This document shows, piece after piece, positions 1,837 through 62,743 of a stretch of DNA of 64,000 nucleotides. How positions within the stretch are numbered: position 1 is the first letter of the stretch; the number at the start of each line of letters is the position of its first letter. The position numbers were made by a program, and so were the translations under genes. Below the pieces are notes generated by a model. It worked only from the letters and a program-made list of their open reading frames with translations. It was not told the DNA's origin and did no database searches. Source of the stretch: Terriglobia bacterium (GTDB lineage Bacteria; Acidobacteriota; Terriglobia; Bryobacterales; Bryobacteraceae); the NCBI GenBank assembly GCA_020073265.1, contig JAIQFN010000001.1:186001-250000 (forward strand), in the 5' to 3' direction.

Positions 1837-1876
1837 GCGTTCACACCAGTGTGAACGCGGCCCGCATGAAGCACCC
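1837..1876 (+). repeat. Interspersed palindrome family A, copy 1
   Basis: Arms GCGTTCACAC (1837-1846) and GTGTGAACGC (1849-1858) form a near-perfect palindrome, followed by a GC-rich tail (GGCCCGCATGAAGCACC). Related copies lie at 34905-34951 (opposite strand), 40084-40132 and 46457-46503. All are intergenic. Confidence 0.75.
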
Positions 1877-1973: not shown

Positions 1974-3214
1974 TCATAACAGCTTCGCGGATTTCGGCGA
2001 TATGCGCTTCTCCAGCCGCGCCAGCCGGCGCCTTAGCGGTTCAGTCGGCTCCAAACCGAGCGCGCTGCGCGTCATCTCGAGCGCCATGGCGTAGTTGCGC
2101 TCGCGATGCTCGTAGTATTTCGCGAGTTCGATCAACGCCGCCGCGCGCCACGGATTGGGCGACGCCGCCAGATCCGTCAACACCGGAAGAGCGGCGTGCT
2201 CGCGCCCCAGCTTCTTCTCCAGCGCCGCCATGTCCCACAGGGTGCGGAACAGCAGCTCGTCCGGTAGACCGCGATCAACGGCTTGCCGGAAAAGCGCCAG
2301 CGCGTTCTCATGTTGCTCCGCCTGCCGCCACCAGCGCGCCAACCCGACCATCTCCGCGCCGTGAGCGAACTCGGCCTGATCCGGAGCGTGAAACGCCCGC
2401 GGCACGATGGCCGTCAAGCAGGCCAGCGTCAGGATGTCCATCGCGTTGTGGTGAAAGATGGGCAGCAGCCGGAAAATTTCGTGGGTGCGCAGGTACTCGA
2501 AGTACACGTATGGGATCAGCTCGCCCGGCAGATCGCCCTGCCGTTCGACACCCAGGATCTGGTTCTCGAGATCCACCAGCCGGCAACTGTCGAAGCGCAG
2601 ATTCCACAGCCGGCGCGCGCCAAAAAGCAGGTCCAGGTGTTCCAGCGAACCGAACGGAGGACGCTGCCGCACCATGCGGAAGCGCGTTTCGAGCAATGGC
2701 TGATCGTAAGTCCGGCCGTTATAGGTGATCAGCACGTCGAAGTCCTTGAGATGCTCGCGCAGCGCGCTGAGCTGGCTGGTCTCCTCGCCGAAATCGCGCA
2801 TGAAGAACTGGCGCACGCGAAAACCTTCGGGCGTTATGCGGCCCACGCCGACCAGGAACGCGTACGTTCCCGATCCACCCGCCAGACCCGTGGTTTCCGT
2901 GTCGAGGAAACACCATCGCGCCGGCGGGACGCCCTGAATCGCGCCTCCGGAAATGGACGCGAGCAGATCGGCGGACAAGTCTTCGAGATCCGCGATGCCG
3001 ATGCTGCCATGCCGGCGATGCCGCTCGTAAAGCTTTTCGGTCTCGAAGTGGCGCCCGTGCCCGGTCTCGATCTCTTGACCCGCCAGCCATTCTTCGGGAG
3101 CCGGAATGACGGGCTGGGGAGTGGCAACAGCGCGGCGCGGCTTGCCCTCCGCGTACTTCCGATCGATCTTCGCGATGCGGCGGCGAAGGTGCGCGAGTTG
3201 CTCTTGAAAGTCGC

Positions 3215-3218
<4 letters not shown>
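1974..3218 (-). CDS. YprB-like RNase H-fold (predicted exonuclease) protein with helical repeat tail
   Basis: 414 residues. The start is the ATG overlapping the upstream ABC-F stop as ATGA (3215-3218). Residues about 110-290 form a ribonuclease H-like exonuclease domain of the YprB type: RWCFLDTETTGLAGGSGT carries the DTET catalytic motif, VLITYNGRTYDQPLLETRF the second acidic region, and HHNAMDILTLACL the last aspartate. The C-terminal ~130 residues are helical and TPR-like (HENALALFRQAVDRGLPDE, NYAMALEMTRSALGLEPTEP). It is probably a metal-dependent nuclease; the substrate is unknown. It is coupled to the ABC-F gene, which hints at an RNA or ribosome-linked role, but that is only inference. 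Confidence 0.8.
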
Positions 3219-5140
<1,922 letters not shown>

Positions 5141-6323: not shown

Positions 6324-7430
6324 TCATTTCCTGCGCCCTTTCGCCGGACGCTTTGCCATCGCCGCGCGCCATGCTTCCCAGTCTTCGGTAGTTGCCTTGA
6401 CCATGCGGCCGGCGGCGTCATGCAGCCAATGGCGCGAGCGGTTGCCCAGGTGCCGCGGAATCGCCTGGCCGGCGCCGGCGCTACCCAGATGCACGTTCGC
6501 GGTCTCGAAACCCATAGCGTGCAGCAGCTTGCTCTCGTCGCGTTCCTTCGGCATGGAAGCCAGCTCGATGCGTGAACAATCGGGCGCCAGACGCCGCACG
6601 ATCCAGCGGCCTTTCAAGCGCACGAAAGGATCGATGGCGCGCCGCGCGCGGTCCAGAATTTCCTGATAGCGGAGGCGCTCGGACACCCCGTCGCCGGCCC
6701 ACACACAGGCCGAAGGAGCCAGCGCCTTGGCTTCCCGCGCCACCTTGGCGCCGCGATACATAGCGATCGCCACGAAGCGCTCGCGCCCCAGGCTCCCCAA
6801 ACCGGCGATCCGATGTGCTGTGCGATACTCCAGGCCGCCTTCGGGAAGCATGCGCTCCAGCGCGCGGCGGGCGCTCTTCGGGACTCGCCCCTTGTAGGTC
6901 GGCAGGCTGTCGAGCTTTTCCCAAAACTGCCGTGGATCGCGTAGCGCGCCTGTCACCATCTCGCGAAGCCAGCCGTGCTCTTCGGCCATCACGATGGGGC
7001 GGCCCCCCGTTTCGAGGCCCTTCTTGTAACCGCTGAGAATCGCGCCACAGGCATCCTTGGGAGCGATTTCGAGCCGCGCTTCGCGCACCGCGATGTGGGC
7101 GCTGGCCGCAAGCCGCACCAGGTCGACGCTGTAGGGCAGCTCGAACGCTTCATCGAAATCGTTGATGCCCCAAACCAGCCGGCCCTCCACGTCCCGCCAC
7201 GTGCCGAAGTTTTCAACATGCAGGTCGCCGACGGCCAGAACCTTGGGCGCGGCCCGCTCCTCCGGGCAAATCTGCGGCCAGAGCTGCATCCAGCGATAGA
7301 ACGTCGCGCGCAGGAACGGAAATACGTCCGCCGCCATGGCCGCGTGCTTGCGTTCCAGATCGGCGTCCAGCAAATCGATGCGCTTGCCCAGCCAGGTTTC
7401 GTAGCCCCGGGTGGCCTTCGCGATCTTCAT
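6324..7430 (-). CDS. DUF2252 family protein
   Basis: 368 residues from the ATG that overlaps the upstream hydrolase stop as ATGA (7427-7430); in-frame starts further upstream would lie inside that gene. The protein carries DUF2252 features: KVLAVGDLHVENFGTWRDVE and WGINDFDEAFELPYSVDLVR near residues 65-105, reminiscent of a kinase-like fold (HGDLHxxN and DFD motifs), then RLKGRWIVRRLAPDCSRIEL and the C-terminal HLGNRSRHWLHDA. DUF2252 is thought to be distantly related to aminoglycoside phosphotransferase/CotH-like kinases; its substrate is unknown. The coupling to the MetX-like hydrolase suggests joint expression. Confidence 0.82.
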   Translation of the reverse strand: MKIAKATRGYETWLGKRIDLLDADLERKHAAMAADVFPFLRATFYRWMQLWPQICPEERAAPKVLAVGDLHVENFGTWRDVEGRLVWGINDFDEAFELPYSVDLVRLAASAHIAVREARLEIAPKDACGAILSGYKKGLETGGRPIVMAEEHGWLREMVTGALRDPRQFWEKLDSLPTYKGRVPKSARRALERMLPEGGLEYRTAHRIAGLGSLGRERFVAIAMYRGAKVAREAKALAPSACVWAGDGVSERLRYQEILDRARRAIDPFVRLKGRWIVRRLAPDCSRIELASMPKERDESKLLHAMGFETANVHLGSAGAGQAIPRHLGNRSRHWLHDAAGRMVKATTEDWEAWRAAMAKRPAKGRRK

Positions 7431-8476
7431 CGGGCGCCGCTCGCAGCGGAGTGCGCGCCTGCTTCCGGCGGCCGCGAGGCCTCCAACAGCTCGGCCAAAT
7501 ACTGCTTCCATATCGCAGGCAGGGAATGCGTGCCGTGACCGCGCGTCTCACTGGTGATTGGCAGCAAAACGAAGCGGCCGCGTTTCACCCGCTGGATGGT
7601 GCGCTCCAGAATGCCCAACTCGGGCGGATTCACTACGTCGTCGGCCGAGTTGATGGCCACCAGCGGGGCCTGAATTTTACCTAAATCCGGCTCGGGATTG
7701 TAGTCGCGCGAAGAATCGAACTGGTACAGCATGTCGACGGCATTGTTGGCCTCCATCCGCCTGCGGATGGTTTCGTCGAAGAGCTTGTCGGCCTGGTCGC
7801 GCGTGGGCGCCTGCTTCTGCATCTGCAGCGGACTGGACGTCATGATCACCAGAATATCGATGGCCATGCGCAGCCCGTTCACCGGATCGTTGCGCAGCGC
7901 GTCGATAATCATGCGCCGGAAGAAGCGGTTTCGTCCCGCGATCTCCACCGGCGCGCTGGCCAGCGGCATCAGCGCGTCCATGAAGTCCGGATATTTCTCC
8001 CCCCACACCCAGCTCTGCATGCCGCCCATGGAAGTGCCCGTCACCAGGCGCAGGTGCTTCACCCCCAGCCCTTCGGTGAGCAATCGGTACTGCGCTGCCA
8101 CCATGTCGTCGTAGTCGTAGCGCGGAAAGCGTTCGCCCAACCCGTCGCTCGGCTTGCTGGATTTTCCATGGCCGATGCCGTCCGGCAGAACGATGTAGTA
8201 CCGGCTGGCGTCCAACAACTGGCCGGGACCGAACAACACCCCGGCGAATTGCTCGCTCAGGAATTGCTTTCCGGTTCCGCCTGTACCGTGCATGATCAGA
8301 ACGGCGTTGTCGCCACGTAGCGATCCCAGCGTGGTGTAGTGGAGCTTCAGTTCAGGCAGGCTGCCTCCGTCCTTGAACCGAAAGTCGCGCAGCACGAAGT
8401 CCGCCTCTTTCGGCGGCGGGTAATCGGCTCCGGCCGCGCAGAAGCCGAACACCAACAGCAAAGCCAGATGGCGCAC
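7427..8476 (-). CDS. Alpha/beta hydrolase of the MetX (homoserine O-acetyltransferase)-like type, exported
   Basis: 349 residues with a signal peptide (RHLALLLVFGFCAAGADYPP). It shows the alpha/beta-hydrolase nucleophile elbow GTSMGGMQSW (Ser near residue 150), an oxyanion-type HGTGGTGKQFL stretch near 65, a late aspartate in INSADDVVNPPELG and the final histidine in ETRGHGTHSLP. The overall layout is that of the homoserine acetyltransferase/MetX clade, but a signal peptide and no met genes nearby make a secreted esterase or acyltransferase more likely. A TATAAT box sits seven bases before the ATG, suggesting a nearly leaderless mRNA. Coupled to the DUF2252 gene. Confidence 0.82.
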   Translation of the reverse strand: MRHLALLLVFGFCAAGADYPPPKEADFVLRDFRFKDGGSLPELKLHYTTLGSLRGDNAVLIMHGTGGTGKQFLSEQFAGVLFGPGQLLDASRYYIVLPDGIGHGKSSKPSDGLGERFPRYDYDDMVAAQYRLLTEGLGVKHLRLVTGTSMGGMQSWVWGEKYPDFMDALMPLASAPVEIAGRNRFFRRMIIDALRNDPVNGLRMAIDILVIMTSSPLQMQKQAPTRDQADKLFDETIRRRMEANNAVDMLYQFDSSRDYNPEPDLGKIQAPLVAINSADDVVNPPELGILERTIQRVKRGRFVLLPITSETRGHGTHSLPAIWKQYLAELLEASRPPEAGAHSAASGAR

Positions 8477-16153: not shown

Positions 16154-16196
16154 AGTGGGGCAGCCAATCCTGGCTGCAGCCGGCCTTCAGCCGGCG
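16154..16196 (+). repeat. Interspersed repeat family C, copy 1
   Basis: Begins AGTGGGGCAGCCAATCCTGG and continues CTGCAGCCGG then CCTTCAGCCGGCG. Contains two small stem-loops (CAGCCaatccTGGCTG and GCCGGccttcaGCCGGC). It begins 11 bases after the Nudix stop and overlaps the last ten bases of the convergent gene. Other copies: 32783-32824 and 41178-41283. Confidence 0.8.
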
Positions 16197-25524: not shown

Positions 25525-25704
25525 TGCAAGTCTCCGACACCCTAAGATCGGCGGAGGCCCCGGAAAAGCTTATATAAGGTGGACAAACGGCTCTGGCACC
25601 GACTACCGTGCCAGTCTAAATGGTTCCGAACGGAAATGGAATACAGCCGATTCGATTCCGTTTGCAATGAGTCGGGTGCATTAAGGTATAACAAAAGTGG
25701 ATTT

Positions 25705-25998
25705 GTGATTCCCCATCGCTACCTCCTCAGGCACTTTCTAGCTGGCACATGTTTGCTTCTTACGACGAAAGGCTTACTGTTGTCCCAGTCCCCTTCGCCC
25801 AGGGATATTCTCGTACGCTTCTGTGATCTCGATGCGCGAGGCGAACTACTTTCTCCAGAAGGCTGGGAGCGGTTAGCGGCGCTCTTCACTGCGCCAGGAG
25901 CGCCTCGGCACGATGAGATCACCGTTGTCAGAGATTTCGTTGTAGGCAAGGATTATGGCAACCCTGACTCCTTGATGCTTTTATTTTTGGAATGCTGA
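25705..25998 (+). pseudogene. Truncated secreted-protein gene
   Basis: Ninety-seven codons from a GTG at 25705 (upstream in-frame starts give an implausible N-terminus). A signal-like segment (FLAGTCLLLTTKGLLLSQ) is followed by ILVRFCDLDARGELLSPEGW and TVVRDFVVGK. That N-terminal pattern resembles a secreted acidobacterial family in which about 60-80 more residues normally follow. Here it stops after DSLMLLFLEC, so the gene looks truncated. The stop overlaps the next gene's upstream start. Read as a broken gene; a short functional product cannot be excluded. Confidence 0.45.
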
Positions 25999-26000
25999 CT

Positions 26001-26612
26001 ATGGTAAAAATTGTTTTCCTCGTTTGTCTTGCTTTGAACGCCGCTAGCGCTCTCGGCTGTGAATGTGTCCCCTTATCGCTGAACGAAGCAAAAGCGATGG
26101 CGGAGGTGGTGTTCCGTGGAACAATCACGGACATCCGCGCCGGTAAAGTGTTCTTCCGCGTAGACCGCGTTTGGAAAGGCAACGTGGGCCGTACTTTCGA
26201 CATGCCCGACTTCACCGAGTCTTCGGCGTGCATCGGCTTCATGCCGAAGTGGCTTCGAGTCGGAAACGACCTCCTTGTATTTGCCACGCGGCTGCATCGA
26301 TACCCGGGCGACAACGACTACTTCACCAATATATGCAGCTGGACAAGCCTCGCAAGTGAAGCAGGTGATGCTCTTGAAAAGTTGGGGAGAGGCAGACTTC
26401 CACGCAACTCGCCGGCCCCAAGCGGTAAAGTGGGACAGCTGTGGCCCGCAAAAATTCGGTCCGCGCCAAGCTACCTCCTCTCCCAAGCGATAGTCGTGGT
26501 GCAACCCGCCGAGGATCGGTCGCGATTTGACGATATGTGCGGCGGGAAGCCTATGTCTATGGCCGCTGGCCGGAACATTCGCTTGGATGGGTTCCGGAAT
26601 GCCAGGGCCTAG
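26001..26612 (+). CDS. Secreted TIMP/NTR-like protein with a chimeric C-terminus
   Basis: 203 residues; ATG at 26001 (GGAA eight bases before) or 25992. The signal peptide ends at LNAASALGCECVPL, so the mature protein begins with a C-x-C pair, as in tissue-inhibitor-of-metalloprotease/netrin-like domains. AEVVFRGTITDIRAGKVFFR and VDRVWKGNVGRTF are typical of bacterial members. After about residue 135 (GRGRLPRNSPAPSG) the reading frame runs into a repeat shared with 29731-29811, so the last ~70 residues are probably not native. Likely a damaged gene that still encodes the inhibitor-like domain. Confidence 0.6.
   Translation: MVKIVFLVCLALNAASALGCECVPLSLNEAKAMAEVVFRGTITDIRAGKVFFRVDRVWKGNVGRTFDMPDFTESSACIGFMPKWLRVGNDLLVFATRLHRYPGDNDYFTNICSWTSLASEAGDALEKLGRGRLPRNSPAPSGKVGQLWPAKIRSAPSYLLSQAIVVVQPAEDRSRFDDMCGGKPMSMAAGRNIRLDGFRNARA
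26446..26527. repeat. 80-bp direct repeat, copy 1
   Basis: Begins CCGCAAAAATTCGGTCCGCG and continues CCAAGCTACCTCCTC ... GCGATAGTCGTGGTGCAACC. About 80% identical by eye to 29731-29811, in the same orientation. It lies inside the 3' part of the TIMP-like reading frame. Possibly the edge of a lost mobile element; no transposase was recognised. Confidence 0.7.
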
Positions 26613-28921
26613 TGAGGAGTGAGGACGGCCACGATTGTAGTACAGGACGACCAGGCGGAAGCGCCACCCTGGTTCCCAATCTGATGAACATGTCAGTCGG
26701 GGACACCCGCACCATGCAGGCGCTGAATTCTTCGGGGCAGCCGGTTACGGGACTTACCTGGGCATCCAGCGACTCCAACATCGTAAGTCTTTCCACCGAC
26801 GACCCGCCCGTACTGACGGCCGTCGCCGCCGGCCACGCGACCATCACGGCCGGTGGAGCCTCCGCCGATATCACCGTTGTTTCCGGCGCCCTGGCGCTCG
26901 GTACCATACTTTGGTCGAACCCAGGCGGCGCTTCCGGTGTCTATTCCATTGTGCCTGCCGTGCCCAGCCCCAACGGCGTCGCCGACGTTTTCGCCTTCCA
27001 AAACGACAGCACAGTGCAAGCCATCACCAGCGACGGCACCACGGCCTGGACAGCGAATCTGAGCAACGTGCTGGAGGCCAGGTTCTCCGATTTAAGATTC
27101 GACCTCAACGCCATACCGGATTTCCAGGGTGGCCTGGTGCTCGCCAAATTCCCGCCCGGCAATTGCTGCCAGCTCGCCTCCATCGTGAAGCTGGACGGGA
27201 TCACCGGCCAGCCGGGGCCAGCCTACACGCCCAGCGGGACGGCGTACCTGTACCTCGACAGTCCGCTGGTGGTCCATCCGGACGGCACCATCTTCGCTCT
27301 TCAAACCGTGGGAGATCCCGACCCGCTCGGCAACTACGCGCCGGCCGTGATTGGCATCGATTCGGCCACCGGCGCGCAGAAGTTCAGCGTGCCGCTCGAG
27401 AACTTCAATCCCGACTATTCCGGCGAGTGGGGGCCAACGCCGCGCCTCATCATCGCCGGCGACGGCAATGCGTACGTGGCATACTCGTATCCGGTGGGAG
27501 CGGGCGCTTCAGTGCAACTCAGTGTGCTGCGCGTCAGCAGCAGCGGCGACCATGCCACCATCCCGATCCAATCCTATCCGGTGGGAATCTGGTTCTTCCC
27601 GCAGATCCAGGCGGACATGATCACCAACGCCGACACTGGCGTCGCGCTCACTTGGAAAGCGGCGCGGCCCTACGCGCCGGAAGGAGGCGGCCTACCGAAT
27701 CGCCCGGCGCCCTATCCGGTGGAGTACGGCATGGCGATCGTGACAGGAACGAGCGCAGCAGTAACCAGCGGACCAAGCGTGGCCGGCCAGGTGACGCATG
27801 TCGCGCCGGTGCTGCAGGCTGAGGACGGTTCGTTCATCGGCACCGTTGGCGTCGCGCCGGACCAGGACGGCAACCCGACCCGGACCAACATGGTCGCGTT
27901 CGATCAGAGTGGCGCAGTTCGGTGGATCGTACCGAACGAGCAGCCGCAGATCGCAGTCTCCGGCGGCGGAGTGATCACACAAACTGGAACCACCCATGAC
28001 CAAGGCGGAAACGCGACCGGGCTGAGCAGCCTCGAGAGTAGCCAAGTACCTGGATGGCTTGGCAACGTATTTGGAACAGCTTATGCCCTGAACTCCGGCA
28101 CGCTTTCGTCGGCGGTGTCACAGAACACGAATTACGCAACCACGTTCGCTTCCTTGCTGGGCGGGAACGGATCAGGTTCCTTCACAGCCATTCTGCAGGT
28201 AATAACAAAGCCGCCACAGACCGGTGCAAAGCAGTTACCGAATCTTAGTTCCGCCAGTTGCTTGTCAACTTTCACACCCACCTGTGGAAACATCAATGCC
28301 GTCGAACTCCTTACGACTGCGTCGCCTGATTTCATTTTCCAGAACTACATCCAGACGTTCCTGCCAGTAACTGCCCTCGCAAACCCACGGAACCCCGTAA
28401 TGACGTTCACGGGTCCTGGAGGCAGCAATACAATAAATGTCACGGGAGCTGGCCAAACGTTGACGATCGCTCTAAGAGGATTTGATCAGTTTCTTCAAAA
28501 TCCGTTCCAGGTAATGACGGAACGGTTCGATCCGACTGCCCACACCATCTCCGTTGTTACATTGGCAGGCCATCCCCTAGCAGGCTGGCGATACTGGCGA
28601 GTCTATTCCATCGGAACAAACGACGTGGTTATAGAGACAGGCGCATATGATCAGCCGGGACCTGGAGCCAAGAATTTTGCAGGATACTACGTCGCCACCG
28701 GATCTGTATTCCGAGGATGGCAGAAGTACCTGGAGTTTATACAGAGCAAGCTGCCGCCTGGCACCGTCCAGGGATCTCATCTTCAGAACAGCCTTGGCGG
28801 AATTCCCCTCAGGAATTTCCCGGTGCCACACCAACCTTTGCTGAAGGGCTATTGGGACCACTTGGGCGATTTCACGCAATACATTCTGAACAATGTCTGC
28901 CAATCAACATCTTGCAATTGA
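26537..28921 (+). CDS. Secreted protein with a Big_2-type Ig-like domain, damaged N-terminus
   Basis: 794 codons open. From residue ~47 (TLVPNLMNMSVGDTRTMQAL) to ~118 there is a bacterial Ig-like domain (Big_2): GLTWASSDSNIVSLSTDDPP, AAGHATITAGGASADITVV. Then a long beta-propeller-like region (PNGVADVFAFQNDSTVQAIT; IVKLDGITGQPGPAYTP; VVHPDGTIFAL) and a C-terminal domain (HPLAGWRYWRVYSIG, IETGAYDQPGPGAKNFAGYY). No signal peptide is present in this frame. A one-base frameshift near 26654 would join VVQDDQ, read in another frame from a GTG at about 26625, to GGSATLVPN. So the natural N-terminus seems lost or shifted, and the product may not be exported. Confidence 0.6.
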   Translation: MRREAYVYGRWPEHSLGWVPECQGLVRSEDGHDCSTGRPGGSATLVPNLMNMSVGDTRTMQALNSSGQPVTGLTWASSDSNIVSLSTDDPPVLTAVAAGHATITAGGASADITVVSGALALGTILWSNPGGASGVYSIVPAVPSPNGVADVFAFQNDSTVQAITSDGTTAWTANLSNVLEARFSDLRFDLNAIPDFQGGLVLAKFPPGNCCQLASIVKLDGITGQPGPAYTPSGTAYLYLDSPLVVHPDGTIFALQTVGDPDPLGNYAPAVIGIDSATGAQKFSVPLENFNPDYSGEWGPTPRLIIAGDGNAYVAYSYPVGAGASVQLSVLRVSSSGDHATIPIQSYPVGIWFFPQIQADMITNADTGVALTWKAARPYAPEGGGLPNRPAPYPVEYGMAIVTGTSAAVTSGPSVAGQVTHVAPVLQAEDGSFIGTVGVAPDQDGNPTRTNMVAFDQSGAVRWIVPNEQPQIAVSGGGVITQTGTTHDQGGNATGLSSLESSQVPGWLGNVFGTAYALNSGTLSSAVSQNTNYATTFASLLGGNGSGSFTAILQVITKPPQTGAKQLPNLSSASCLSTFTPTCGNINAVELLTTASPDFIFQNYIQTFLPVTALANPRNPVMTFTGPGGSNTINVTGAGQTLTIALRGFDQFLQNPFQVMTERFDPTAHTISVVTLAGHPLAGWRYWRVYSIGTNDVVIETGAYDQPGPGAKNFAGYYVATGSVFRGWQKYLEFIQSKLPPGTVQGSHLQNSLGGIPLRNFPVPHQPLLKGYWDHLGDFTQYILNNVCQSTSCN

Positions 28922-28929
28922 GCGCATCA

Positions 28930-29727
28930 ATGGGTACAACCGCGAAAATAATAGTCGCCATTGCAATCATTACCGGATTGATAGTGGGCGTTAGCTATAA
29001 GGTGTACTTCATTCGTGAGAACAGCGTCGGTTATGTGATGTGGAATCCCAGGGAAGCATTTTTCTTCATCCATACCGGCAAGGATGGCCTGTACGTAAGC
29101 GGTCTCGGTTATCCATGGTACAAATTCAAACAGTATCTCGGCGGCTTCGCCGCGGTGGAACTCCCCGATGATCAACGAGTATCCCTGGTTGTTTTTCGAG
29201 TGACGCCTATTGGTGTAGAACACCACATGGTTAGGGTGGATCGCGGCGCTCACGGAGGTCCTGGAAGGGATGCTGATAAGTACACGCCGCTCGACGATCG
29301 CATCTACGCGTACTGCCCTGAGGTCATCGGAAGTTTTATGCAGGATGGTCACTTGGTAGCAAAAGACCCGAATGATGGACTGTGCCGGTGGACTGGCGAT
29401 CACTTCGAGAAAGCGACGGAGGAGGAACGGCAACGGCTTGGTGGCGTTAGCCGTCTCACCATGGGGGATTTCGAGAACAATGAAGACGGATGGTCGCGCC
29501 GTGCATTTGGTGCTGAACAAATGGACCGCAGATTTACGATTGACATGGGCGACAAGTGTCGACTTGCCGTGAATAATGTGGTAACGAGACCTGGTAATAG
29601 CAGTATTACAATAGATCTGCTACTCCCCGGAAAGACTCCCGAAAGGATAGGGGTTTTCGAGGCACGCGAGGGAAGGGTCAGCAAGTCCGAGTACCAGCAC
29701 ACCTTCCAAAGTCCGAGTGGCGATTGA
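28930..29727 (+). CDS. Membrane-anchored hypothetical protein
   Basis: 265 residues from the ATG at 28930, nine bases after the preceding stop. A single hydrophobic segment (TTAKIIVAIAIITGLIVGVS) at the N-terminus is a membrane anchor or uncleaved signal. The rest is soluble and mixed: VGYVMWNPREAFFFIHTGKD, DDRIYAYCPEVIGSFMQDGH, DHFEKATEEERQRLGGVSRL. I do not recognise a family. Its codon use and slightly lower GC resemble the neighbouring accessory genes. It ends just before the second 80-bp repeat. Confidence 0.6.
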   Translation: MGTTAKIIVAIAIITGLIVGVSYKVYFIRENSVGYVMWNPREAFFFIHTGKDGLYVSGLGYPWYKFKQYLGGFAAVELPDDQRVSLVVFRVTPIGVEHHMVRVDRGAHGGPGRDADKYTPLDDRIYAYCPEVIGSFMQDGHLVAKDPNDGLCRWTGDHFEKATEEERQRLGGVSRLTMGDFENNEDGWSRRAFGAEQMDRRFTIDMGDKCRLAVNNVVTRPGNSSITIDLLLPGKTPERIGVFEAREGRVSKSEYQHTFQSPSGD

Positions 29728-29730
29728 CAT

Positions 29731-29811
29731 CCGCAAAAATTCGGTCCGGCGCTAAGCTACCTCCTTTTCAGGCGATAGTCATGATGCAACCCTCCGAGAA
29801 CCGGTGAGGAG
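29731..29811. repeat. 80-bp direct repeat, copy 2
   Basis: CCGCAAAAATTCGGTCCGGC, continuing GCTAAGCTACCTCCT ... GCGATAGTCATGATGCAACC. Related to 26446-26527 with about one difference in five. The two copies bracket the Big_2 protein gene and the 28930 gene (about 3.3 kb). Confidence 0.7.
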
Positions 29812-30206
29812 ATCGCCCGGATCGTCGCTGAAAGTTAGCGGCCCTCGATTCTCATAGACTACGCGACCGCGGCTCCTTGAGCGTCCTGCCTGATCCTATC
29901 GGCGGCCTAACACTTGCAAGCTTTGCTCCCGGCAATTGCTGTCAAGCCGCAGTAACCACCAACGCCCGCTTCTTTCTCGCCCATCCTGAACAACTTCCGA
30001 ACGCGCCGCAATGCGCCCGCACAGCCCGGTTGATAAACTACAACCGCAATGTCTAACAGCGCCTGGAAATCAGACTCCATCACGCCCCACGCGCCCGAAA
30101 AAGTAAAATTACAAAACAAACCGAATCCCATTTCTGGACACTTCCGCCGTCCATTCTGAATTCCGCCTCCCTCCCCGCCCGCTCCCCCCAGGCGTAAAAT
30201 CAAACC
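29812..30206. other. Intergenic stretch without a recognised gene
   Basis: About 400 bp between the second 80-bp repeat and the molybdenum hydroxylase operon. Short open frames exist on both strands but none has a ribosome site or recognisable product. The last 60 bases are pyrimidine-rich, with AGGCGTAAAATCAAACC just before the next start. No clear promoter was identified. Confidence 0.5.
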
Positions 30207-30692
30207 ATGGAACTGGTCGTCAATCAGAAGCACTACCGCATCGAAGTCCACCCCGACCGCATGCTCCTCTGGGTCCTCCGCAACGACCTCGAACTCACCG
30301 GCACCAAGTACGGCTGCGGCGAAGGCCAGTGCGGCGCCTGCACCGTCCTGGTCGACGGCGCCCCGGTCCGCTCCTGCCTGGCCCGCGCCTCCACCGCCGC
30401 CGGAAAAGAAATCACCACCATCGAAGGCCTCGCCCAAAACGGCAAGCTGCATCCCTTGCAGGAAGCTTTCATCCAGGCCGACGCCATGCAGTGCGGCTAC
30501 TGCACCCCCGGCATGATCGTCTCCGGCGCCGCGCTGCTCAAGAAAACTCCCCAGCCTAGCGACGCCGAGATCCGCCGCGCCATGGAGGGCAACGTCTGCC
30601 GCTGCGGCACCTACCCGCGAATCGTGGCCGCGGTCCGGATGGCCTCGCGCCAGTCGACCCAGCGAACCGCTAACGGAGGCCCGCATGCTTGA
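30207..30692 (+). CDS. Molybdenum hydroxylase small subunit, two [2Fe-2S] clusters
   Basis: 161 residues. The plant-type ferredoxin cluster is bound by GCGEGQCGACTVLVDG with Cys37, 42 and 45, plus Cys57 (VRSCLAR). The second, helical cluster domain has QCGYCTPGMI and VCRCGTYPRI. This is the small subunit of the xanthine oxidase family in its isoquinoline-1-oxidoreductase/aldehyde-dehydrogenase (IorA-like) form. It shares an 8-bp overlap with the large subunit gene and no FAD subunit gene is present, so electrons probably go to a cytochrome or quinone. Confidence 0.93.
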   Translation: MELVVNQKHYRIEVHPDRMLLWVLRNDLELTGTKYGCGEGQCGACTVLVDGAPVRSCLARASTAAGKEITTIEGLAQNGKLHPLQEAFIQADAMQCGYCTPGMIVSGAALLKKTPQPSDAEIRRAMEGNVCRCGTYPRIVAAVRMASRQSTQRTANGGPHA

Positions 30693-32784
30693 ACCGGAAC
30701 GCTACGAACTGAACGAAGGTCCCGCCTACCACTTCGAACTCGAGCGGCGCGACTTCTTCAAATTCCTCGGCGGCGGCCTGGTCCTGCTCCTGGTCTTCGA
30801 CCACCCCGCTGACGCCCAGGAATCCGGCCGAGCCCCACGCGGCGACGCGCGCCCGCCCGAAATCGCAGCCTGGCTGCACATCGGCGAGGACGGCGCCGTC
30901 ACCGTCTACACCGGCAAAGCCGAAATGGGCCAGAACATCCGCACCTCGCTCACCCAAGCTGTCGCCGAGGAACTGCACGCCCCGGTCTCGTCCATCCAGC
31001 TCGTCATGGCCGACACCGCGCTCACACCCTACGACATGGGCACTTTCGGAAGCCGCACCACTCCCACCATGGCGCCGCAGCTCCGAAAAGTGGGCGCAGC
31101 CGCGCGCGAGGCTCTCATTGGACTCGCCGCCGAGAAGTGGAAAACCAGCCGCGCGTCCATCACCGTCGCCGGCGGCAAAGTCAAAAACGCCTCGAGCGGT
31201 GAAACCATCGGTTTCGGCGAGCTCACCCAGGGCCGCCAGATCATGAGCACCGTGAACGCCGCCAACCTCACTCCCGCCGACCAGTGGACGACAGCAGGTT
31301 CCTCCGTCACCAAAGTCAACGCGCGCGACATCGTCACCGGCGCGCACCGCTACGCCAGCGACATCGCGCGGCCCGGCATGCTGCTCGGCCGAGTCCTGCG
31401 CCCGCCCATGGTCGACGCCAAGCTCGTTTCCGTGGACGCTTCCAAGCTGAACGGCGTCTCCGGCGTCCTGGTCGTCCGCGACGGCGATTTCGCCGGCGTC
31501 GTGGCCGAAGATGAGCTGACCGCAGCCACCGCCCTCGCCGCGATCAGCTCCAGGTGGGACCACCAAAAGGACCAGCCCTCCGACAAGAACGTCTACCAGT
31601 ACCTCAAGAGCCACACGCAGTCCGGCGCCAGATCCAATCCCGAGCACGGCTCCATCGACCAGGCCCTGGCCTCGTCCGATCACAAGCTCGACGCCACCTA
31701 CACCGTCGCCTACATCGCCCATACGCCGCTCGAGCCGCGCGCCGCCGTGGCCGAATGGGAGGACGGCAAACTCACCGTGTGGACTGGAACGCAGCGCCCC
31801 TTCGGCGTCCGCAGCGAGCTGGCCGAAGCCTTCAGCATTCCAGAGGACCGCGTGCGCGTGATCGTGCCCGACACCGGCTCCGGCTATGGCGGCAAACATT
31901 CCGGTGAATGCGCCATCGAAGCGGCGCGCCTCGCCAAGGCCGCCAAGAAGCCCGTCAAGTTGATCTGGACGCGCGAGGAGGAATTCACCTGGGCCTACTT
32001 CCGGCCCGCCGGCGTCATCGACATCCGCGGCGGAATCACTAGCGACGGCCTGCTCGCCGCCTGGGAATTTCACAACTACAATTCCGGACCGTCGGGCATC
32101 AACACCCCGTACGAAGTCCCCAGCCACGTGATCGAGTTTCACGCCACCGACTCGCCGCTCCGCCAGGGCTCCTATCGCGGACTCGCGGCCACGGCCAACC
32201 ATTTCGCGCGCGAATCGCACATGGACGACTTGGCCGTTGCGGCCGGCCTGGACCCGCTCGAATTCCGCCTGAAGAATCTGAAGGACGCCCGCCTGCGCGC
32301 GGTGCTCCAGGCCGCCGCTGACAAATTCGGCTGGAGCAATTCGCAGAGCACTCCCACGCGCGGGTTCGGCCTCGCCTGCGGCGTCGAAAAAGGTGGCTAC
32401 GTCGCCAGTTGCGCCGAAGTCTCCATCGCGCAGCCCGGCGGCAAGGTCAAGATCGAGCGCGTGGTCACCGCCTTCGAGTGCGGCGCCATCGTGAATCCCG
32501 AACATCTGAAGAACCAGGTGGAGGGCTCGGTCATCATGGGGATCGGCGGCGCGCTGTTCGAGTCCATTCAGTTCGCGGACGGCAAGATCCTCAACGCGCA
32601 GCTCTCGAAATATCGCGTGCCGCGCTTCTCCGACACTCCCGCCGTCGAAACCGTGCTGCTCGATCGCAAGGATCTGCCATCCGCCGGCGCCGGCGAAACC
32701 CCCATCGTGGCCCTGGCCCCGGCCGTCGGCAACGCCATCTTCCACGCCACCGGCACCCGCATCCGCTCATTACCCATGATCTAG
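30685..32784 (+). CDS. Molybdenum hydroxylase large subunit (IorB-like), Tat-exported
   Basis: 699 residues. The N-terminus ERRDFFKFLGGGLVLLLVFD is a twin-arginine signal, so the complex is probably exported folded with its small subunit. Molybdopterin cytosine dinucleotide-binding motifs: YTGKAEMGQNIRTSLTQAVA near residue 75, TGTQRPFGVRSELAEAF, GSGYGGKHSGECAIEAARLA near 400, QGSYRGLAATANHFARESHM, and FECGAIVNPEHLKNQVEGS near the end. GGKHSGEC carries the segment around the conserved region before the catalytic Glu. Family known for hydroxylating N-heterocycles or oxidising aldehydes; the substrate here is unknown. The stop TAG forms the first bases of a family C repeat. Confidence 0.92.
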   Translation: MLEPERYELNEGPAYHFELERRDFFKFLGGGLVLLLVFDHPADAQESGRAPRGDARPPEIAAWLHIGEDGAVTVYTGKAEMGQNIRTSLTQAVAEELHAPVSSIQLVMADTALTPYDMGTFGSRTTPTMAPQLRKVGAAAREALIGLAAEKWKTSRASITVAGGKVKNASSGETIGFGELTQGRQIMSTVNAANLTPADQWTTAGSSVTKVNARDIVTGAHRYASDIARPGMLLGRVLRPPMVDAKLVSVDASKLNGVSGVLVVRDGDFAGVVAEDELTAATALAAISSRWDHQKDQPSDKNVYQYLKSHTQSGARSNPEHGSIDQALASSDHKLDATYTVAYIAHTPLEPRAAVAEWEDGKLTVWTGTQRPFGVRSELAEAFSIPEDRVRVIVPDTGSGYGGKHSGECAIEAARLAKAAKKPVKLIWTREEEFTWAYFRPAGVIDIRGGITSDGLLAAWEFHNYNSGPSGINTPYEVPSHVIEFHATDSPLRQGSYRGLAATANHFARESHMDDLAVAAGLDPLEFRLKNLKDARLRAVLQAAADKFGWSNSQSTPTRGFGLACGVEKGGYVASCAEVSIAQPGGKVKIERVVTAFECGAIVNPEHLKNQVEGSVIMGIGGALFESIQFADGKILNAQLSKYRVPRFSDTPAVETVLLDRKDLPSAGAGETPIVALAPAVGNAIFHATGTRIRSLPMI

Positions 32785-32824
32785 TGGGGCAGCCAATCCT
32801 GGCTGCCGCCGGCTTCAGCCGGCG
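32783..32824 (+). repeat. Interspersed repeat family C, copy 2
   Basis: AGTGGGGCAGCCAATCCTGG then CTGCCGCCGGCTTCAGCCGG CG. Nearly identical to 16154-16196. The preceding gene's TAG stop overlaps its first two bases. Confidence 0.8.
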
Positions 32825-32862
32825 TCAGTGCACGCCGCCCGGCCCGCCCTATATCAGCTACA

Positions 32863-33843
32863 ATGACTCAAAATATGCGATATCCTCGCCTCTTCCTGAT
32901 CACCGGCTTCCTCGCGCTGCTGTCCCTCGGCTTCCTCCTCACCCGCGGCGACGCCCAGCCCAACACCGTCAAGCAAATCGCTCCCGGCGTCTGGTTCCGC
33001 GAAGGCGACATCATCCATGAGGGCCACTGCAACAACATGATCATCGAGATGAAGGACTACCTCATCGTCGTCGACGCCAACTTCCCCTCCGGGGCCCGCG
33101 CCGCGCTCGCCGACGCCAAGAAAGTCTCTTCCAAGCCCGTCAAATACGTCTTCGACACCCACCATCACGGCGATCACGCCTACGGCAACGCGGTATGGAC
33201 CCAGCAGGGCGCCGTCACCATCGCCTTCCAAGGCGTCGCCGACGAAATGAAGCGCTACGAACCCGCGCGTTGGCAGTCCGCCGCGAAAGAGCGCAAGGAC
33301 GTCGCCGACATGCACAGCAACGGCCCCGAGCCTCCTAAGCAAACCTTCACCGACAACCCGCACGTCCTCACCGACGGCACGCGCCGCGTCGAGTTCCGCT
33401 CCTTCGGCTGGGCCCACACCCGTGGCGACGGCTTCGTGTATCTGCCAAAAGAAAAAGTCCTGTGTACCGGCGACGCCGTCGCCAACGGCCCCTACAACTA
33501 CACCGCCGACGGCAACATCGGCAACTGGCCCAACGTCGTCGCGGGCGCGATGAAGCTGGACGTCGAGCATGTCCTGCCCGGCCACGGCCCCGCCGGCGGC
33601 AAAGAGGTGCTGGTCGGCCAGCGTGCCTTTATGCTCGAGCTGCACAAGGGTGTCGAGGCCGCCATCAAGAGCGGCCAGAAGCTGGGCGATCTGGTCAAGA
33701 CCGAAAATGGCCGGCAGGTCGCCGCCCTGCAGCTTCCCGACAGCGTGAAGAACTGGGTCGGACCATCGCTGCCCGCCCAAGTCACCGACGCCTACAACGA
33801 AATCACCAACAAAAAGGCCGCCGGTGACCTTCCCCATCAGTAA
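32863..33843 (+). CDS. Metallo-beta-lactamase-fold hydrolase, exported
   Basis: 326 residues; ATG at 32863 or 32875. A signal peptide follows (RLFLITGFLALLSLGFLLTR). The metallo-beta-lactamase motif is THHHGDHAYGNAV (near 100-112), with further ligands in SFGWAHTRGDGFVYLPKEKV (His), LCTGDAVANGP (Asp) and HVLPGHGPAGGKE (His). NMIIEMKDYLIVVDANFPSG is typical of the first strand pair. It is a periplasmic hydrolase of unknown substrate; its position behind the Tat-exported hydroxylase, 78 bp downstream and across a family C repeat, may be coincidental. Confidence 0.88.
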   Translation: MTQNMRYPRLFLITGFLALLSLGFLLTRGDAQPNTVKQIAPGVWFREGDIIHEGHCNNMIIEMKDYLIVVDANFPSGARAALADAKKVSSKPVKYVFDTHHHGDHAYGNAVWTQQGAVTIAFQGVADEMKRYEPARWQSAAKERKDVADMHSNGPEPPKQTFTDNPHVLTDGTRRVEFRSFGWAHTRGDGFVYLPKEKVLCTGDAVANGPYNYTADGNIGNWPNVVAGAMKLDVEHVLPGHGPAGGKEVLVGQRAFMLELHKGVEAAIKSGQKLGDLVKTENGRQVAALQLPDSVKNWVGPSLPAQVTDAYNEITNKKAAGDLPHQ

Positions 33844-34904: not shown

Positions 34905-34951
34905 CGTGGCGCACGCACTCCTCGGTGCCGCGTTCACACTCGTGTGAACGC
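34905..34951 (-). repeat. Interspersed palindrome family A, copy 2
   Basis: On the minus strand GCGTTCACAC then GTGTGAACGC with a two-base centre, followed by GGCACCGAGGAGTGCGTGCG CCACG. Same element as 40084-40132 in opposite orientation. It starts seven bases after the GNAT stop. Confidence 0.78.
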
Positions 34952-35000
34952 AGGGGTCTGTAGTTTACCACCCGCGCAGTCGATAGCTGAAAGGGGACAC

Positions 35001-40083: not shown

Positions 40084-40132
40084 GCGTTCACACGAGTGTG
40101 AACGCGGCACGCACGAGTGCGTACGCTACGGG
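40084..40132 (+). repeat. Interspersed palindrome family A, copy 3
   Basis: GCGTTCACAC, two bases, GTGTGAACGC, then GGCACGCACGAGTGCGTACG CTAC. It lies between the divergent TAXI and isomerase genes and so sits where their promoters should be. Confidence 0.78.
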
Positions 40133-40154: not shown

Positions 40155-41180
40155 ATGGTTCGTCTCTTCCCGTTCACTCTGGTCGCGATCGCGGCTCTCT
40201 CCCTTGGTGGTTGCAAGCGGGCGGTCCCGGACAATGTCGCCGCAACGGTGAACGGGCGCGTGATCACTTTCGCCGACCTGGACAAGCAGGTGCAAGCGCA
40301 ATTCATGTCGGCGACCGAGCGTCCCAGCGACGACCAGATGACCATCCAGAAGCTGGAAGTGCTGCGCACGCTGGTGGACAACGAGATCATGCTGCAGCGC
40401 GCCGAGCGGCTGGGCCTGATGGCGACCGACGCCGACGTCGAGTCGAAGTTCACCGAACTCAAGGCGCCCTACACGCAGGAGGAATTTCAGAAACAACTGG
40501 CCGCGCGCAAGATGTCGGTGGACGACATGAAGGCGCAGCTCAAGCGCGACCTGAGCATCACCAAGCTGTTCAACAAGGAGATCACCTCCCACATTTCGAT
40601 TTCCGACAAAGACGTGACCGACTTCTACAACTCCAACAAGAGCAGCTTCAACTTCCCCGAGCCGCAAGTGCACCTGGCCCAGATCCTGGTGACTCCCATG
40701 CCGGACCCGAACGTGAAGAATCTGAAGAACGACAAAGCGCAGAACGAAGACCAGGCGCGCAAGAAGATCGACATGCTGGCGGCGCGCATGCGGCAAGGCG
40801 AGGACTACGCGATGCTGGCCCAGAATTATTCCGAGGATCCGGCGTCGGCGGCCAACGGAGGGGACCTGGGATTCGTGCCGGAATCGGCGCTGGAGAAAGC
40901 CAACCCCGAGATCCGGCGCGCGATTCAAACCGCCTCACCCGGCCAGGTGACGCCGGTGGTGAAGACTCCGGAGGGTTACCGGATTTTCAAGATCTATTCC
41001 AAAGAACCCGCCGGCCAGAGGGAACTGACCGATCCGCGAGTGCAGCAGAACATCCGCGAGACGCTGCTCAATCGCAAGGATCAGCTTCTGCGCGCTGCCT
41101 ACTACGAAGTGGCGCGCGATGAAGTCAAAGTGGTGAACTACCTGGCGCAGTCGATTGCGCAGATCAAGGATCAGAAATAG
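40155..41180 (+). CDS. SurA/PrsA-type peptidyl-prolyl isomerase lipoprotein
   Basis: 341 residues. Lipoprotein signal with Cys20 (AIAALSLGGCKRAVPDN). Residues about 25-165 form a SurA N-terminal-type helical chaperone domain (VAATVNGRVITFADLDKQVQ, LRTLVDNEIMLQRAERLG), followed by a parvulin rotamase domain (VHLAQILVTPMPDPN, RMRQGEDYAMLAQNYSEDPA, GGDLGFVPE, GQVTPVVKTPEGYRIFKIYS). A periplasmic folding factor for outer-membrane or exported proteins. Its TAG stop abuts a family C repeat. Confidence 0.9.
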   Translation: MVRLFPFTLVAIAALSLGGCKRAVPDNVAATVNGRVITFADLDKQVQAQFMSATERPSDDQMTIQKLEVLRTLVDNEIMLQRAERLGLMATDADVESKFTELKAPYTQEEFQKQLAARKMSVDDMKAQLKRDLSITKLFNKEITSHISISDKDVTDFYNSNKSSFNFPEPQVHLAQILVTPMPDPNVKNLKNDKAQNEDQARKKIDMLAARMRQGEDYAMLAQNYSEDPASAANGGDLGFVPESALEKANPEIRRAIQTASPGQVTPVVKTPEGYRIFKIYSKEPAGQRELTDPRVQQNIRETLLNRKDQLLRAAYYEVARDEVKVVNYLAQSIAQIKDQK

Positions 41181-41283
41181 TGGGGCAGCCAATCGTGGCT
41201 GCAGCCGTCTTTTAGGCGGCTCTGGTATTCACGGGAGACGCCGGCTGAAAGCCGGCTGCGGGCAGGATTGCCCGCCCCACCAG
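41178..41283. repeat. Family C repeat, long form (BIME-like)
   Basis: TGGGGCAGCCAATCGTGGCT then GCAGCCG on the left and, in opposite orientation, GCGGGCAGGATTGCCCGCCC CACCA at the right end, with inner stem-loops (GCCGGCTGAAAGCCGGC). It completely fills the gap between convergent genes and overlaps the TAG stop of the isomerase gene, so it probably ends both transcripts. Confidence 0.8.
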
Positions 41284-42819: not shown

Positions 42820-42876
42820 CTGATTAATTATGTCAGAAAAGAGTACTAAGTGCTTTTGGGAGCTTTGAAAACCCGG

Positions 42877-43012
42877 GGACAGACGGATCTGTCCACGCGC
42901 GAAGGCCGCTTGTCAAATTGTGGCCTTGGGACAGACGGATCTGTCCACGCGCGAAGGCCACTTGTCAGATCAAAGAGAGACCTCTGCCGCTTGGGACAGA
43001 TTCGTCTGTCCC
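42877..43012. repeat. Family B palindromes, cluster of three
   Basis: GGACAGACGGATCTGTCC at 42877-42894 and again at 42929-42946, each followed by ACGCGCGAAGGCC, making a 52-bp tandem unit; a third copy in opposite orientation, GGGACAGATTCGTCTGTCCC, is at 42993-43012. All lie in the gap after the osmC gene and before the 511-residue protein's start. Confidence 0.8.
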
Positions 43013-46456: not shown

Positions 46457-46503
46457 GCGTTCGCAGAAGTGCGAACGCTGCACGCTTGAGTGCGCGCGCC
46501 ACG
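46457..46503 (+). repeat. Interspersed palindrome family A, copy 4
   Basis: Variant palindrome GCGTTCGCA, four bases, TGCGAACGC, then TGCACGCTTGAGTGCGCGCG. It fills the gap between the kinase start and the upstream gene's stop. Confidence 0.7.
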
Positions 46504-62576: not shown

Positions 62577-62743
62577 TGGTCGGGCGCAGGGACCTGCCGG
62601 GCTGCAACTATCGGCAGATTCTGCGATCGATTCACGACAAGCTGCTGGCGCTGGAGGATCGGGTGCTGACGATTCCGGAGCACGGGCCGAACACGACCAT
62701 CGGGCGGGAGCGGGCGCGGAAACCGTTTTTGCAGGGGCTTTAA
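62577..62743 (+). pseudogene. Duplicated 3' fragment of the glyoxalase II-like gene
   Basis: Bases 62581-62743 match 59367-59529 without gaps, with about 11 differences in 163 bases by eye. Translation from 62577: VVGRRDLPGCNYRQILRSIH, then DKLLALEDRVLTIPEHGPNT and TIGRERARKPFLQGL stop; the ligand glycine of IPGHG is IPEHG. A stop codon stands 15 bases upstream of the GTG, so only the fragment is present. It lies on the far side of the second ADOP gene. Confidence 0.85.

What the first reader, a model, noticed from the sequence alone, without database searches (positions are those of the whole stretch)
26446..29811. 80-bp direct repeats bracket two accessory genes
Copies at 26446-26527 and 29731-29811 lie in the same orientation and enclose the Big_2 protein and the 28930 gene. 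This is compatible with insertion or recombination that brought in a 3.3-kb segment.
Basis: seen in the sequence. Interest (0 to 1): 0.5.

Follow-up and report, generated by a model that had tools for sequence, protein, structure and literature searches.

The report
Headless toxin-like cassette between transposon stubs
The two repeats are worn-down ends of an old jumping gene, and the two genes between them look like the cut-off business end of a mix-and-match bacterial weapon and its matching protector gene, from a family whose intact members occur in related soil bacteria.

Summary
The repeat pair is real: 67/80 aligned bases identical, the only significant copies in the 6.4-Mb genome. Both are the terminal inverted repeat plus transposase 3' end of an IS481/IS3-like insertion sequence; two full-length 1.2-kb relatives in another genome of the family share that end. 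They cannot form a working composite element: same orientation, no second end.

The enclosed genes are the interesting part. The "Big_2" gene begins within 6 bp of the left stub and lacks a signal peptide and the TIG repeats of relatives. Acidobacterial relatives share its stem (Ig-like + BamB-like propeller) but end in ten blastp-distinct tail classes, followed by downstream genes with hydrophobic N-terminal or membrane segments. Tail type predicts downstream-gene type (9 of 11 tail-linked pairs, 0 of 142 others). Tails have lower GC3 than stems in 14 of 14 loci tested. The window's tail plus gene 28930 recurs as a pair in three other genomes, once without a stem. This is the pattern of a polymorphic toxin/immunity system, here beheaded and decaying. 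A degraded stem fragment after the right stub favours tandem duplication plus erosion over insertion of a 3.3-kb segment. No clean empty site was found. Toxicity is untested.

The parts
26440..26648 (-). Left IS stub: terminal inverted repeat (26440-26463) plus last ~57 codons of the transposase (reads leftwards)
   Evidence: Tnp of G172 (L033) aa 316-372 matches 26648-26487, 58%, E 1e-14; IS tip as in the full-length G012 copies
29725..29811 (-). Right IS stub: diverged terminal inverted repeat plus about 60 bp of transposase 3' end; its first three bases serve as the TGA stop of gene 28930
   Evidence: 84% identical to left stub; 54/73 to the IS of G012
26654..28921 (+). Headless polymorphic-toxin-like gene (ORF called from 26537 because the frame runs on through the IS stub): Ig-like domain, BamB-like beta-propeller stem, tail T1
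   Evidence: Stem profile match begins at 26654; 7 of 14 stem-bearing relatives scanned have TIG repeats upstream; signal peptides in some; propeller fold
28205..28918 (+). Variable C-terminal tail T1 (about 240 aa; conserved HPLAGWRYWRVYS..ETGA core and two C-terminal Cys)
   Evidence: Same tail in G070, G257, G330; only weak DUF1990 hits
28930..29727 (+). Gene D1, 265 aa, N-terminal hydrophobic segment: candidate cognate immunity gene
   Evidence: Homologue directly after T1 in 4 of 4 T1 loci, window included
29832..29954 (+). Eroded fragment of the same stem (window protein aa 174-214)
   Evidence: tblastn 49% over 41 aa; tblastx 43.7 bits, 0 of 200 random window segments as good; but only 1.2 bits with the family profile
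25579..25998 (+). Candidate orphan immunity-like gene, related to three tandem genes after a CHAT-like tail in G287
   Evidence: tblastn at genome-size statistics E 6e-8 (L196:3215-3382) and 3e-5 (L196:4509-4679); also a gene near the G039 locus (pairwise blastp E 4e-8)
25992..26439 (+). Small exported-looking CxC protein gene whose reading frame runs on into the IS stub (to 26612)
   Evidence: Homologues in G213 and G346 are 135 and 142 aa and stand among unrelated genes

Best explanation
SHOWN: the repeats are two stubs of one IS family, each keeping the transposase-side end. The left one is followed at once by a 5'-truncated stem gene; the right one is followed within about 20 bp by a short, weaker-scoring fragment of the same stem. 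SHOWN by comparison: the stem gene belongs to an acidobacterial family (signal peptide where a start could be read, TIG repeats in half of those scanned, Ig-like domain, BamB-like propeller) with exchangeable C-terminal tails, and tail type goes with downstream-gene type. INFERRED: intact members are Sec-exported polymorphic toxins. The TIG/Ig/propeller part displays the tail outside the cell, the tail attacks a rival's envelope or exported proteins, and the downstream protein protects the producer. INFERRED history here: an IS landed at the 5' side of a toxin gene next to gene 25992. A deletion between the IS interior and the gene removed about 1 kb of IS and the export part of the gene. The 3.29-kb unit (IS stub, stem, tail T1, gene D1) was then duplicated in tandem and the second copy eroded, leaving the second stub and a stem fragment. 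The window copy can no longer be exported by its own signal; it is a reservoir cassette or a decaying gene, while D1 could still protect.
For: IS identity. Stem relatives: 13 of 201 relative genomes at E<=1e-3, 18 of 399 class genomes at E<=1e-10, own genome included in both. Tail variety and pairing: 18 tail/downstream loci, 11 of 153 pairs of loci tail-linked, 9 of these also linked by the downstream gene and 0 of the other 142, 0 of 100,000 permutations (repeated with one corrected gene); leaving out the four T1 loci, 3 of 5 tail-linked pairs, 0 others, 22 of 100,000 permutations. Tail swap inside one genome: G093b and G093c have 86-87% identical stem DNA in the segments that align and diverge just after ...TFDQNGNVTGQIDNLP, no Ns. 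Stem and tail histories differ: the nearest stem to G070a (T1) is G093c (T3b, 57%), not the window (T1, 49%). GC3: stem above tail in 14 of 14 loci tested of the 18 (Wilcoxon p 1.2e-4), stem above downstream gene in 9 of 10. Stem-less T1-D1 cassette in G330 (L160). Fold of stem: Z 17-18 to BamB and YxaL. Signal peptide by rule in L077, by eye in L088 and L094. Duplication.
Against: The IS stubs are more alike (67/80) than the stem copies (69/109 over the whole fragment, Fisher p 0.002; 31/44 in its core, p 0.11), which a single duplication after IS insertion does not predict. The stem fragment scores only 1.2 bits with the family profile. Two tail-linked pairs lack a downstream link at E<=1e-3: T4 (G195, G093b) and T3b (G093c, L089; E 0.003, 1.7e-4 alone). 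T1 loci supply 6 of the 9 linked pairs. Some tail classes may be distantly related (T3a/T3b, E 0.002-0.043; two CHAT-like ones). No tail has a strong Pfam domain: CHAT E 0.036, DUF1990 E 0.012-0.048, HExxH and NlpC/P60-like motifs read by eye. Foldseek TM-scores for the stem are low (0.22-0.36 of the query in the top 25 rows). T1 fold prediction failed (pLDDT 38). Relatives are largely draft MAGs (contig ends, one 2-N gap, one frame break in G070a, one internal TAG in G093c). No toxicity or immunity data exist.
Confidence: 0.66

Rival explanations
1. Two independent insertions of the same IS into two neighbouring stem genes of a pre-existing tandem array, each followed by deletion; no duplication of the unit.
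For: Neighbouring stem genes exist in G070 (L072) and G093 (L073); stem copies are more diverged than the stubs.
Against: Same orientation, same retained IS end and stem sequence next to both; no other significant copy of the stub in the genome and no transposase of this family at E<=1e-30.
Confidence: 0.25
2. The family is an ordinary set of exported hydrolases and binding proteins with lineage-specific C-termini and accessory genes, not toxins; the downstream genes are helpers.
For: No toxicity data; tails lack strong matches to known toxin domains; one downstream gene has a TonB_C domain.
Against: Tail exchange at a fixed point, matching tail and downstream types, a stem-less cassette, lower GC3 of tails. 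Zincin, caspase and NlpC/P60 tails are listed as polymorphic toxin domains in PMC3482391 (passages read).
Confidence: 0.25
3. The repeats flank a mobile 3.3-kb segment (composite element or IS-driven capture of an effector-immunity cassette).
For: They bracket exactly one tail-immunity unit; the T1-D1 pair occurs alone in G330.
Against: Same orientation; the other IS tip was not found near the stubs at up to 3 mismatches; no empty site in the genus; no plasmid match for the repeat or T1 and no viral-contig match for T1.
Confidence: 0.08
4. The repeat is a structured RNA or regulatory element shared by two operons.
For: Only that it is conserved in relatives.
Against: No Rfam match (whole window at gathering; left copy at E<=5); folding no better than shuffles on either strand; encodes the transposase C-terminus.
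Confidence: 0.01

Closest known systems
IS481/IS3-type insertion sequences
   Same: DDE-type transposase of about 375 aa with rve_3 core, TG...CA tips with imperfect inverted repeats, about 1.2 kb
   Different: Transposase scores below the NCBIfam cut-offs (89 of 224 bits IS481; 78 of 160 bits IS3); no target duplication seen by eye; in the window only one end of each copy was found
Polymorphic toxin systems, Sec-exported class (Zhang et al. 2012, PMC3482391; passages and table rows read)
   Same: Constant export/display part, exchangeable C-terminal tails, downstream cognate genes, stem-less toxin-immunity cassettes, beta-propeller listed among stem repeats, zincin, caspase and NlpC/P60 tail classes
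   Different: Stem of TIG repeats, Ig-like domain and BamB-like propeller ('TIG' and 'IPT' do not occur as whole words in the held first 300,000 characters); tail T1 and gene D1 reach no curated cut-off in the libraries searched; window copy has no signal peptide
CDI / Rhs orphan toxin-immunity cassettes (recalled; the cassette principle is in PMC3482391)
   Same: Headless toxin tail followed by its protector gene next to debris of mobile elements
   Different: Stem is a TIG/Ig/propeller type; Rhs or filamentous-haemagglutinin repeats did not show in the Pfam scans made; a CdiB-type partner was not searched for

Membership tests
IS481/IS3-like insertion sequence (the repeats) | Homology to a DDE transposase of the family | tested here: met
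   57 aa at 58%, E 1e-14; rve_3 E 6.8e-15 in the full-length homologue
IS481/IS3-like insertion sequence (the repeats) | Characteristic terminal inverted repeat at the boundary | tested here: met
   TGTGG(T/C)CCGCAAAAA tip as in the two G012 copies: 0 mismatches left, 3 right
IS481/IS3-like insertion sequence (the repeats) | Complete element with both ends and target duplication | tested here: not met
   Only transposase codons 316-372 found; no opposite tip near the stubs at up to 3 mismatches; no duplication seen by eye even in G012. So: stubs, not an element
IS481 or IS3 family sensu NCBIfam | Score above the curated cut-off | tested here: not met
   89 of 224 and 78 of 160 bits; hence 'IS481/IS3-like'
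Polymorphic toxin system (the gene family) | Constant N-terminal part with different C-terminal tails | tested here: met
   10 tail classes at blastp E<=1e-3 among 18 loci, of which G330 has no stem and G257 is cut by a contig end; junction in one genome
Polymorphic toxin system (the gene family) | Cognate downstream gene that changes with the tail | tested here: met
   9 of 11 tail-linked pairs, 0 of 142 others; T4 and, at this cut-off, T3b are exceptions
Polymorphic toxin system (the gene family) | Stem-less tail-immunity cassettes | tested here: met
   G330, L160:6168-6773 and 6786-7526; best of 15 stems against the 12-kb locus E 0.13; one case
Polymorphic toxin system (the gene family) | Export signal | tested here: met
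   Of 9 N-termini inspected L077 passes the script's rule, L088 and L094 look like signal peptides by eye; of the other six one is the window and five showed none, several starting inside frames or at contig ends. No trained predictor was run
Polymorphic toxin system (the window copy) | Export signal | tested here: not met
   ORF starts in IS sequence, no signal peptide; so the window copy is not filed as a working polymorphic toxin
Polymorphic toxin system (the gene family) | Tails belong to known toxin folds | tested here: inconclusive
   CHAT E 0.036; HExxH and NlpC/P60-like motifs by eye; T1 fold failed
Polymorphic toxin system (the gene family) | Toxicity neutralised by the downstream protein | not testable with these tools
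   Needs bench work
DUF1990 (tail T1) | Score above Pfam gathering cut-off | tested here: not met
   16.1 bits (window) and 14.2 bits (G330) against 23

The most novel reading that the evidence does not exclude
Acidobacteria carry a polymorphic toxin family not found in the papers searched, built on a TIG/Ig/BamB-like-propeller stem. Tail T1 with gene D1 is a new effector-immunity pair with disulfide-type extracytoplasmic action, and the window shows how an IS beheads such a gene and so creates a silent orphan cassette that local duplication then copies.
Probability: 0.5. Interest if true: 0.68.

Novelty: new variant of a known kind. Interest (0 to 1): 0.48.

Why it matters
Acidobacteria are abundant soil bacteria that are hard to culture (start of the abstract of PMC3174227, seen), and how they compete is little tested (my own knowledge). 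A family with a constant displayed stem and about ten exchangeable tail classes, most with a candidate protector of their own, would give a ready list of new effector-immunity pairs. The window locus would also document a concrete route from an active toxin gene to a silent cassette: IS insertion, loss of the export part, duplication, erosion. The repeat itself is ordinary IS debris.

Tried and rejected
Structured RNA: no Rfam match in the window at gathering or around the left copy at E<=5; folding not better than shuffles. Composite transposon or site-specific element: orientation and the missing other end speak against it. Empty site: sought in G001, G002, G003, G004; coxS-coxL found in all four at about 72%; in three the upstream side could be read and carries other genes, in G003 the contig ends there. 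Gene 25992 as an orphan protector (it looked TIMP-like by eye): dropped, because its relatives in G213 and G346 stand among unrelated genes and no library matched. Tail T1 structure: pLDDT 38, not used. PDB sequence searches of T1, D1 and the stem gave nothing useful. PADLOC no match; PHROGs an Ig match (E 4e-4) of the stem to a phage structural family and two weaker ones. G093d (2-N gap at L064:2168-2169) was left in the pair counts but is not used as swap evidence. In one search the L089 downstream gene was read from a wrong start; one search repeats the count with the right one (same totals). GC3 was not computed for 4 of the 18 loci (G093c, G093d, G257, G330). VIA-align rows cover model residues 77-475 only; its top row is a designed propeller; the Ig-like domain was not searched alone.

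Literature: searches 'polymorphic toxin + Acidobacteria + immunity' (7 papers, all listed), 'Solibacter + toxin + immunity' (31 papers, 12 listed), 'TIG domain + polymorphic toxin' (0), two of 'Bryobacteraceae / secreted / immunity protein' (1,707, 10 listed), two of 'polymorphic toxin / PQQ / propeller' (128, 8 listed), 'DUF1990 + toxin' (1): none of the listed titles describes this family. Only an open-licence library was searched; of PMC3482391 and PMC3174227 I saw passages, not the whole text.
Full report
WHAT IS THERE. The two repeats exist and are no chance match: 67 of 80 aligned bases identical with 2 gap columns, E 2e-16 against the whole genome, and no other significant copy among 11 and 18 places reported at E<=10. 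They lie in the same orientation around the stem ('Big_2') gene and gene 28930. The window sits on a 310-kb contig of a 6.41-Mb, 131-contig draft genome. Named relatives of the stem gene are Bryobacterales, Ca. Solibacter and other Acidobacteria, so the host is probably a Bryobacteraceae member (inference).

WHAT THE REPEATS ARE. Similar stretches occur in 8 of 201 relative genomes at E<=0.01, own genome included. I inspected the 10 places outside the own genome. By eye, five of them (L032, L033, L034, L039, L041) carry, on the strand opposite to the repeat as read in the window, a frame like ...LGGLHHEYRL...; the other five are matches of 23-30 bases. L033 holds a whole 378-aa transposase with rve_3 core and IS481/IS3-like scores below the curated cut-offs. 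Its codons 316-372 match window 26648-26487 at 58%, E 1e-14. G012 has two copies of such an IS, 98.9% identical over 1.2 kb, with ends TGTGATCCGCAGAAAGTCC... and TGTGGTCCGCAAAAACTCC.... The window stubs start with TGTGGCCCGCAAAAATTCGG (26440) and TGACATCCGCAAAAATTCGG (29725). They are therefore terminal inverted repeat plus transposase 3' end. The opposite tip was not found near them: of 5 window matches at up to 3 mismatches, against 5.5 expected by chance, only the two known tips lie in the region. The own genome has no transposase of this family at E<=1e-30. Gene 25992 reads on into the left stub, and gene 28930 takes its TGA stop from the tip of the right stub.

WHAT THE STUBS DID. The stem profile begins at 26654, 6 bp after the last transposase match, and the ORF called from 26537 starts inside IS sequence, so the gene has lost its head. 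Of 14 stem-bearing relatives scanned, several of them partial, 7 have TIG repeats, 1 to 13 stretches. Among 9 N-termini inspected, one passes a simple signal-peptide rule (L077) and two more look like signal peptides by eye (L088, L094). Right of the right stub, 29832-29954 resembles window stem residues 174-214: 49% over 41 aa, E 9e-4 in the genome search, tblastx 43.7 bits against a best of 37.7 in 200 random segments. Against this, the family profile gives it only 1.2 bits; the likeness is to the window's own stem (shared PGNCCQ), as a local duplicate would show. Tandem duplication of the 3.29-kb unit followed by erosion is my preferred history, but the stubs are more alike than the stem copies (84% against 63-70%; Fisher p 0.002 over the whole fragment, 0.11 over the core), so two independent insertions remain possible. 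In same-genus genomes coxS-coxL is conserved, but in the three with readable upstream DNA the neighbours are other genes, so no empty site can be defined. G001 has its own 35-residue stem remnant.

WHAT THE GENES ARE. A model of the stem from 15 sequences (pLDDT 72, pTM 0.71) is all-beta and matches BamB and YxaL propellers over residues 77-475 (Z 17-18, rmsd 4-5 A; Foldseek E 7e-8 to YxaL but low TM-scores). The first 75 residues correspond to the weak Big_2-type Ig match. After a shared end (TFDQNGNATGQ...) the proteins carry different tails. Classes at blastp E<=1e-3: T1 (window, G070, G257, G330), T2 CHAT-like (G070b, G093d; Pfam CHAT E 0.036 in G070b), T3a and T3b with HE(A/S)LH motifs (G093a, G039; G093c, L089; perhaps distant relatives, E 0.002-0.043), T4 with NlpC/P60-like C...GH motifs (G093b, G195), T5 with HEL..H (G076, L087), and singletons G034 (HELGH), L094, L095 and G287 (CHAT-like by eye). 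Motif readings are by eye.

PAIRING OF TAIL AND DOWNSTREAM GENE. In 18 loci (153 pairs) 11 pairs are linked by tail and 9 by downstream gene; all 9 are among the 11, none among the other 142 (0 of 100,000 permutations, same totals after correcting the L089 gene). Six of the nine come from T1; without the four T1 loci 5 pairs are tail-linked and 3 linked by the downstream gene, all 3 shared (22 of 100,000 permutations). The pairs are not phylogenetically independent. The two tail-linked pairs without a downstream link are T4 and T3b; the T3b genes are weakly alike (E 0.003, 1.7e-4 compared alone). All 18 downstream products have a hydrophobic stretch in their first 70 residues (best 17-residue mean hydropathy 1.4-3.1; no trained predictor was run), as expected if protection is needed outside the cytoplasm (inference). 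Stem and tail histories differ: G070a's stem is closest to a T3b protein (57%) rather than to the window's T1 protein (49%). In G093 two genes with 86-87% identical stem DNA in the segments that align part within about 25 codons of TFDQNGNVTGQIDNLP. Third-position GC is lower in tail than in stem in 14 of 14 loci tested (of 18) and lower in the downstream gene in 9 of 10. The T1-D1 pair stands without a recognisable stem in G330; in G257 the contig ends before the stem. Window stem, tail and D1 compared with G070 have pN well below pS (0.31/0.65, 0.22/0.75, 0.31/0.63), but pS is near saturation, so this says only that the genes were constrained for most of their history.

COMPARISON. These traits match the published description of polymorphic toxins: constant export/display part, recombining C-terminal tails, downstream immunity genes, stand-alone toxin-immunity cassettes; beta-propellers are listed among stem repeats of Sec-exported toxins, and zincin, caspase-like and NlpC/P60 peptidases among tails (PMC3482391; passages and table rows seen). 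What I did not find in print is this stem or the T1/D1 pair (searches, mostly capped lists). So: works like, and for the family probably is, a polymorphic toxin system; the window copy itself fails the export test and is a headless cassette.

NEIGHBOURS. Gene 25579 resembles the three tandem genes that follow the CHAT-like tail in G287 (E 6e-8 and 3e-5 at genome-size statistics) and a gene near the G039 locus, so it may be an orphan protector. Gene 25992 was considered for the same role and dropped.

VERDICT. Observation confirmed; interpretation partly supported; the repeat is ordinary IS debris, and the enclosed gene pair is a new variant of a known kind. Toxicity and immunity remain untested.

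Noticed in passing
L196 (G287:C99) 2585-4766, minus strand: Three tandem paralogues of a small exported-looking protein follow a CHAT-like tail; looks like a small immunity array, related to window gene 25579.
   Followed up: partly
window 1837-1869, 34930-34962, 40084-40116, 46457-46489: Dispersed palindromic repeat GCGTTCACAC..GTGTGAACGC, 4 copies in the window, three of them 70-91% alike to the reference copy (family D2); REP-like.
   Followed up: no
window 16154-16195, 32783-32824, 41179-41220: Three copies of a 42-bp repeat AGTGGGGCAGCCAATC... (family D5), the second right at the end of the coxL ORF.
   Followed up: no
window 42876-42970, 1877-1919, 1937-1966: GGGACAGACGGATCTGTCC palindrome in a near-perfect tandem pair (95%) plus diverged and inverted copies 41 kb away (D4 and I4).
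   Followed up: no
window 59366-59528 and 62580-62742: 163-bp direct repeat, 94% identical, 3.2 kb apart (D1).
   Followed up: no
window 25992-26439: Small exported-looking CxC protein with relatives in 6 other genomes of 399 searched; looks TIMP/NTR-like by eye, no library match.
   Followed up: partly
L080 (G001:C473) 6770-6874, minus strand: A same-genus genome carries an isolated 35-residue stem remnant between unrelated genes, so the family is decaying elsewhere too.
   Followed up: partly
window 30207-33843: coxS-coxL-like pair is conserved in all 4 other same-genus genomes, but the beta-lactamase-fold gene next to it matches on other contigs there: a rearranged region.
   Followed up: partly
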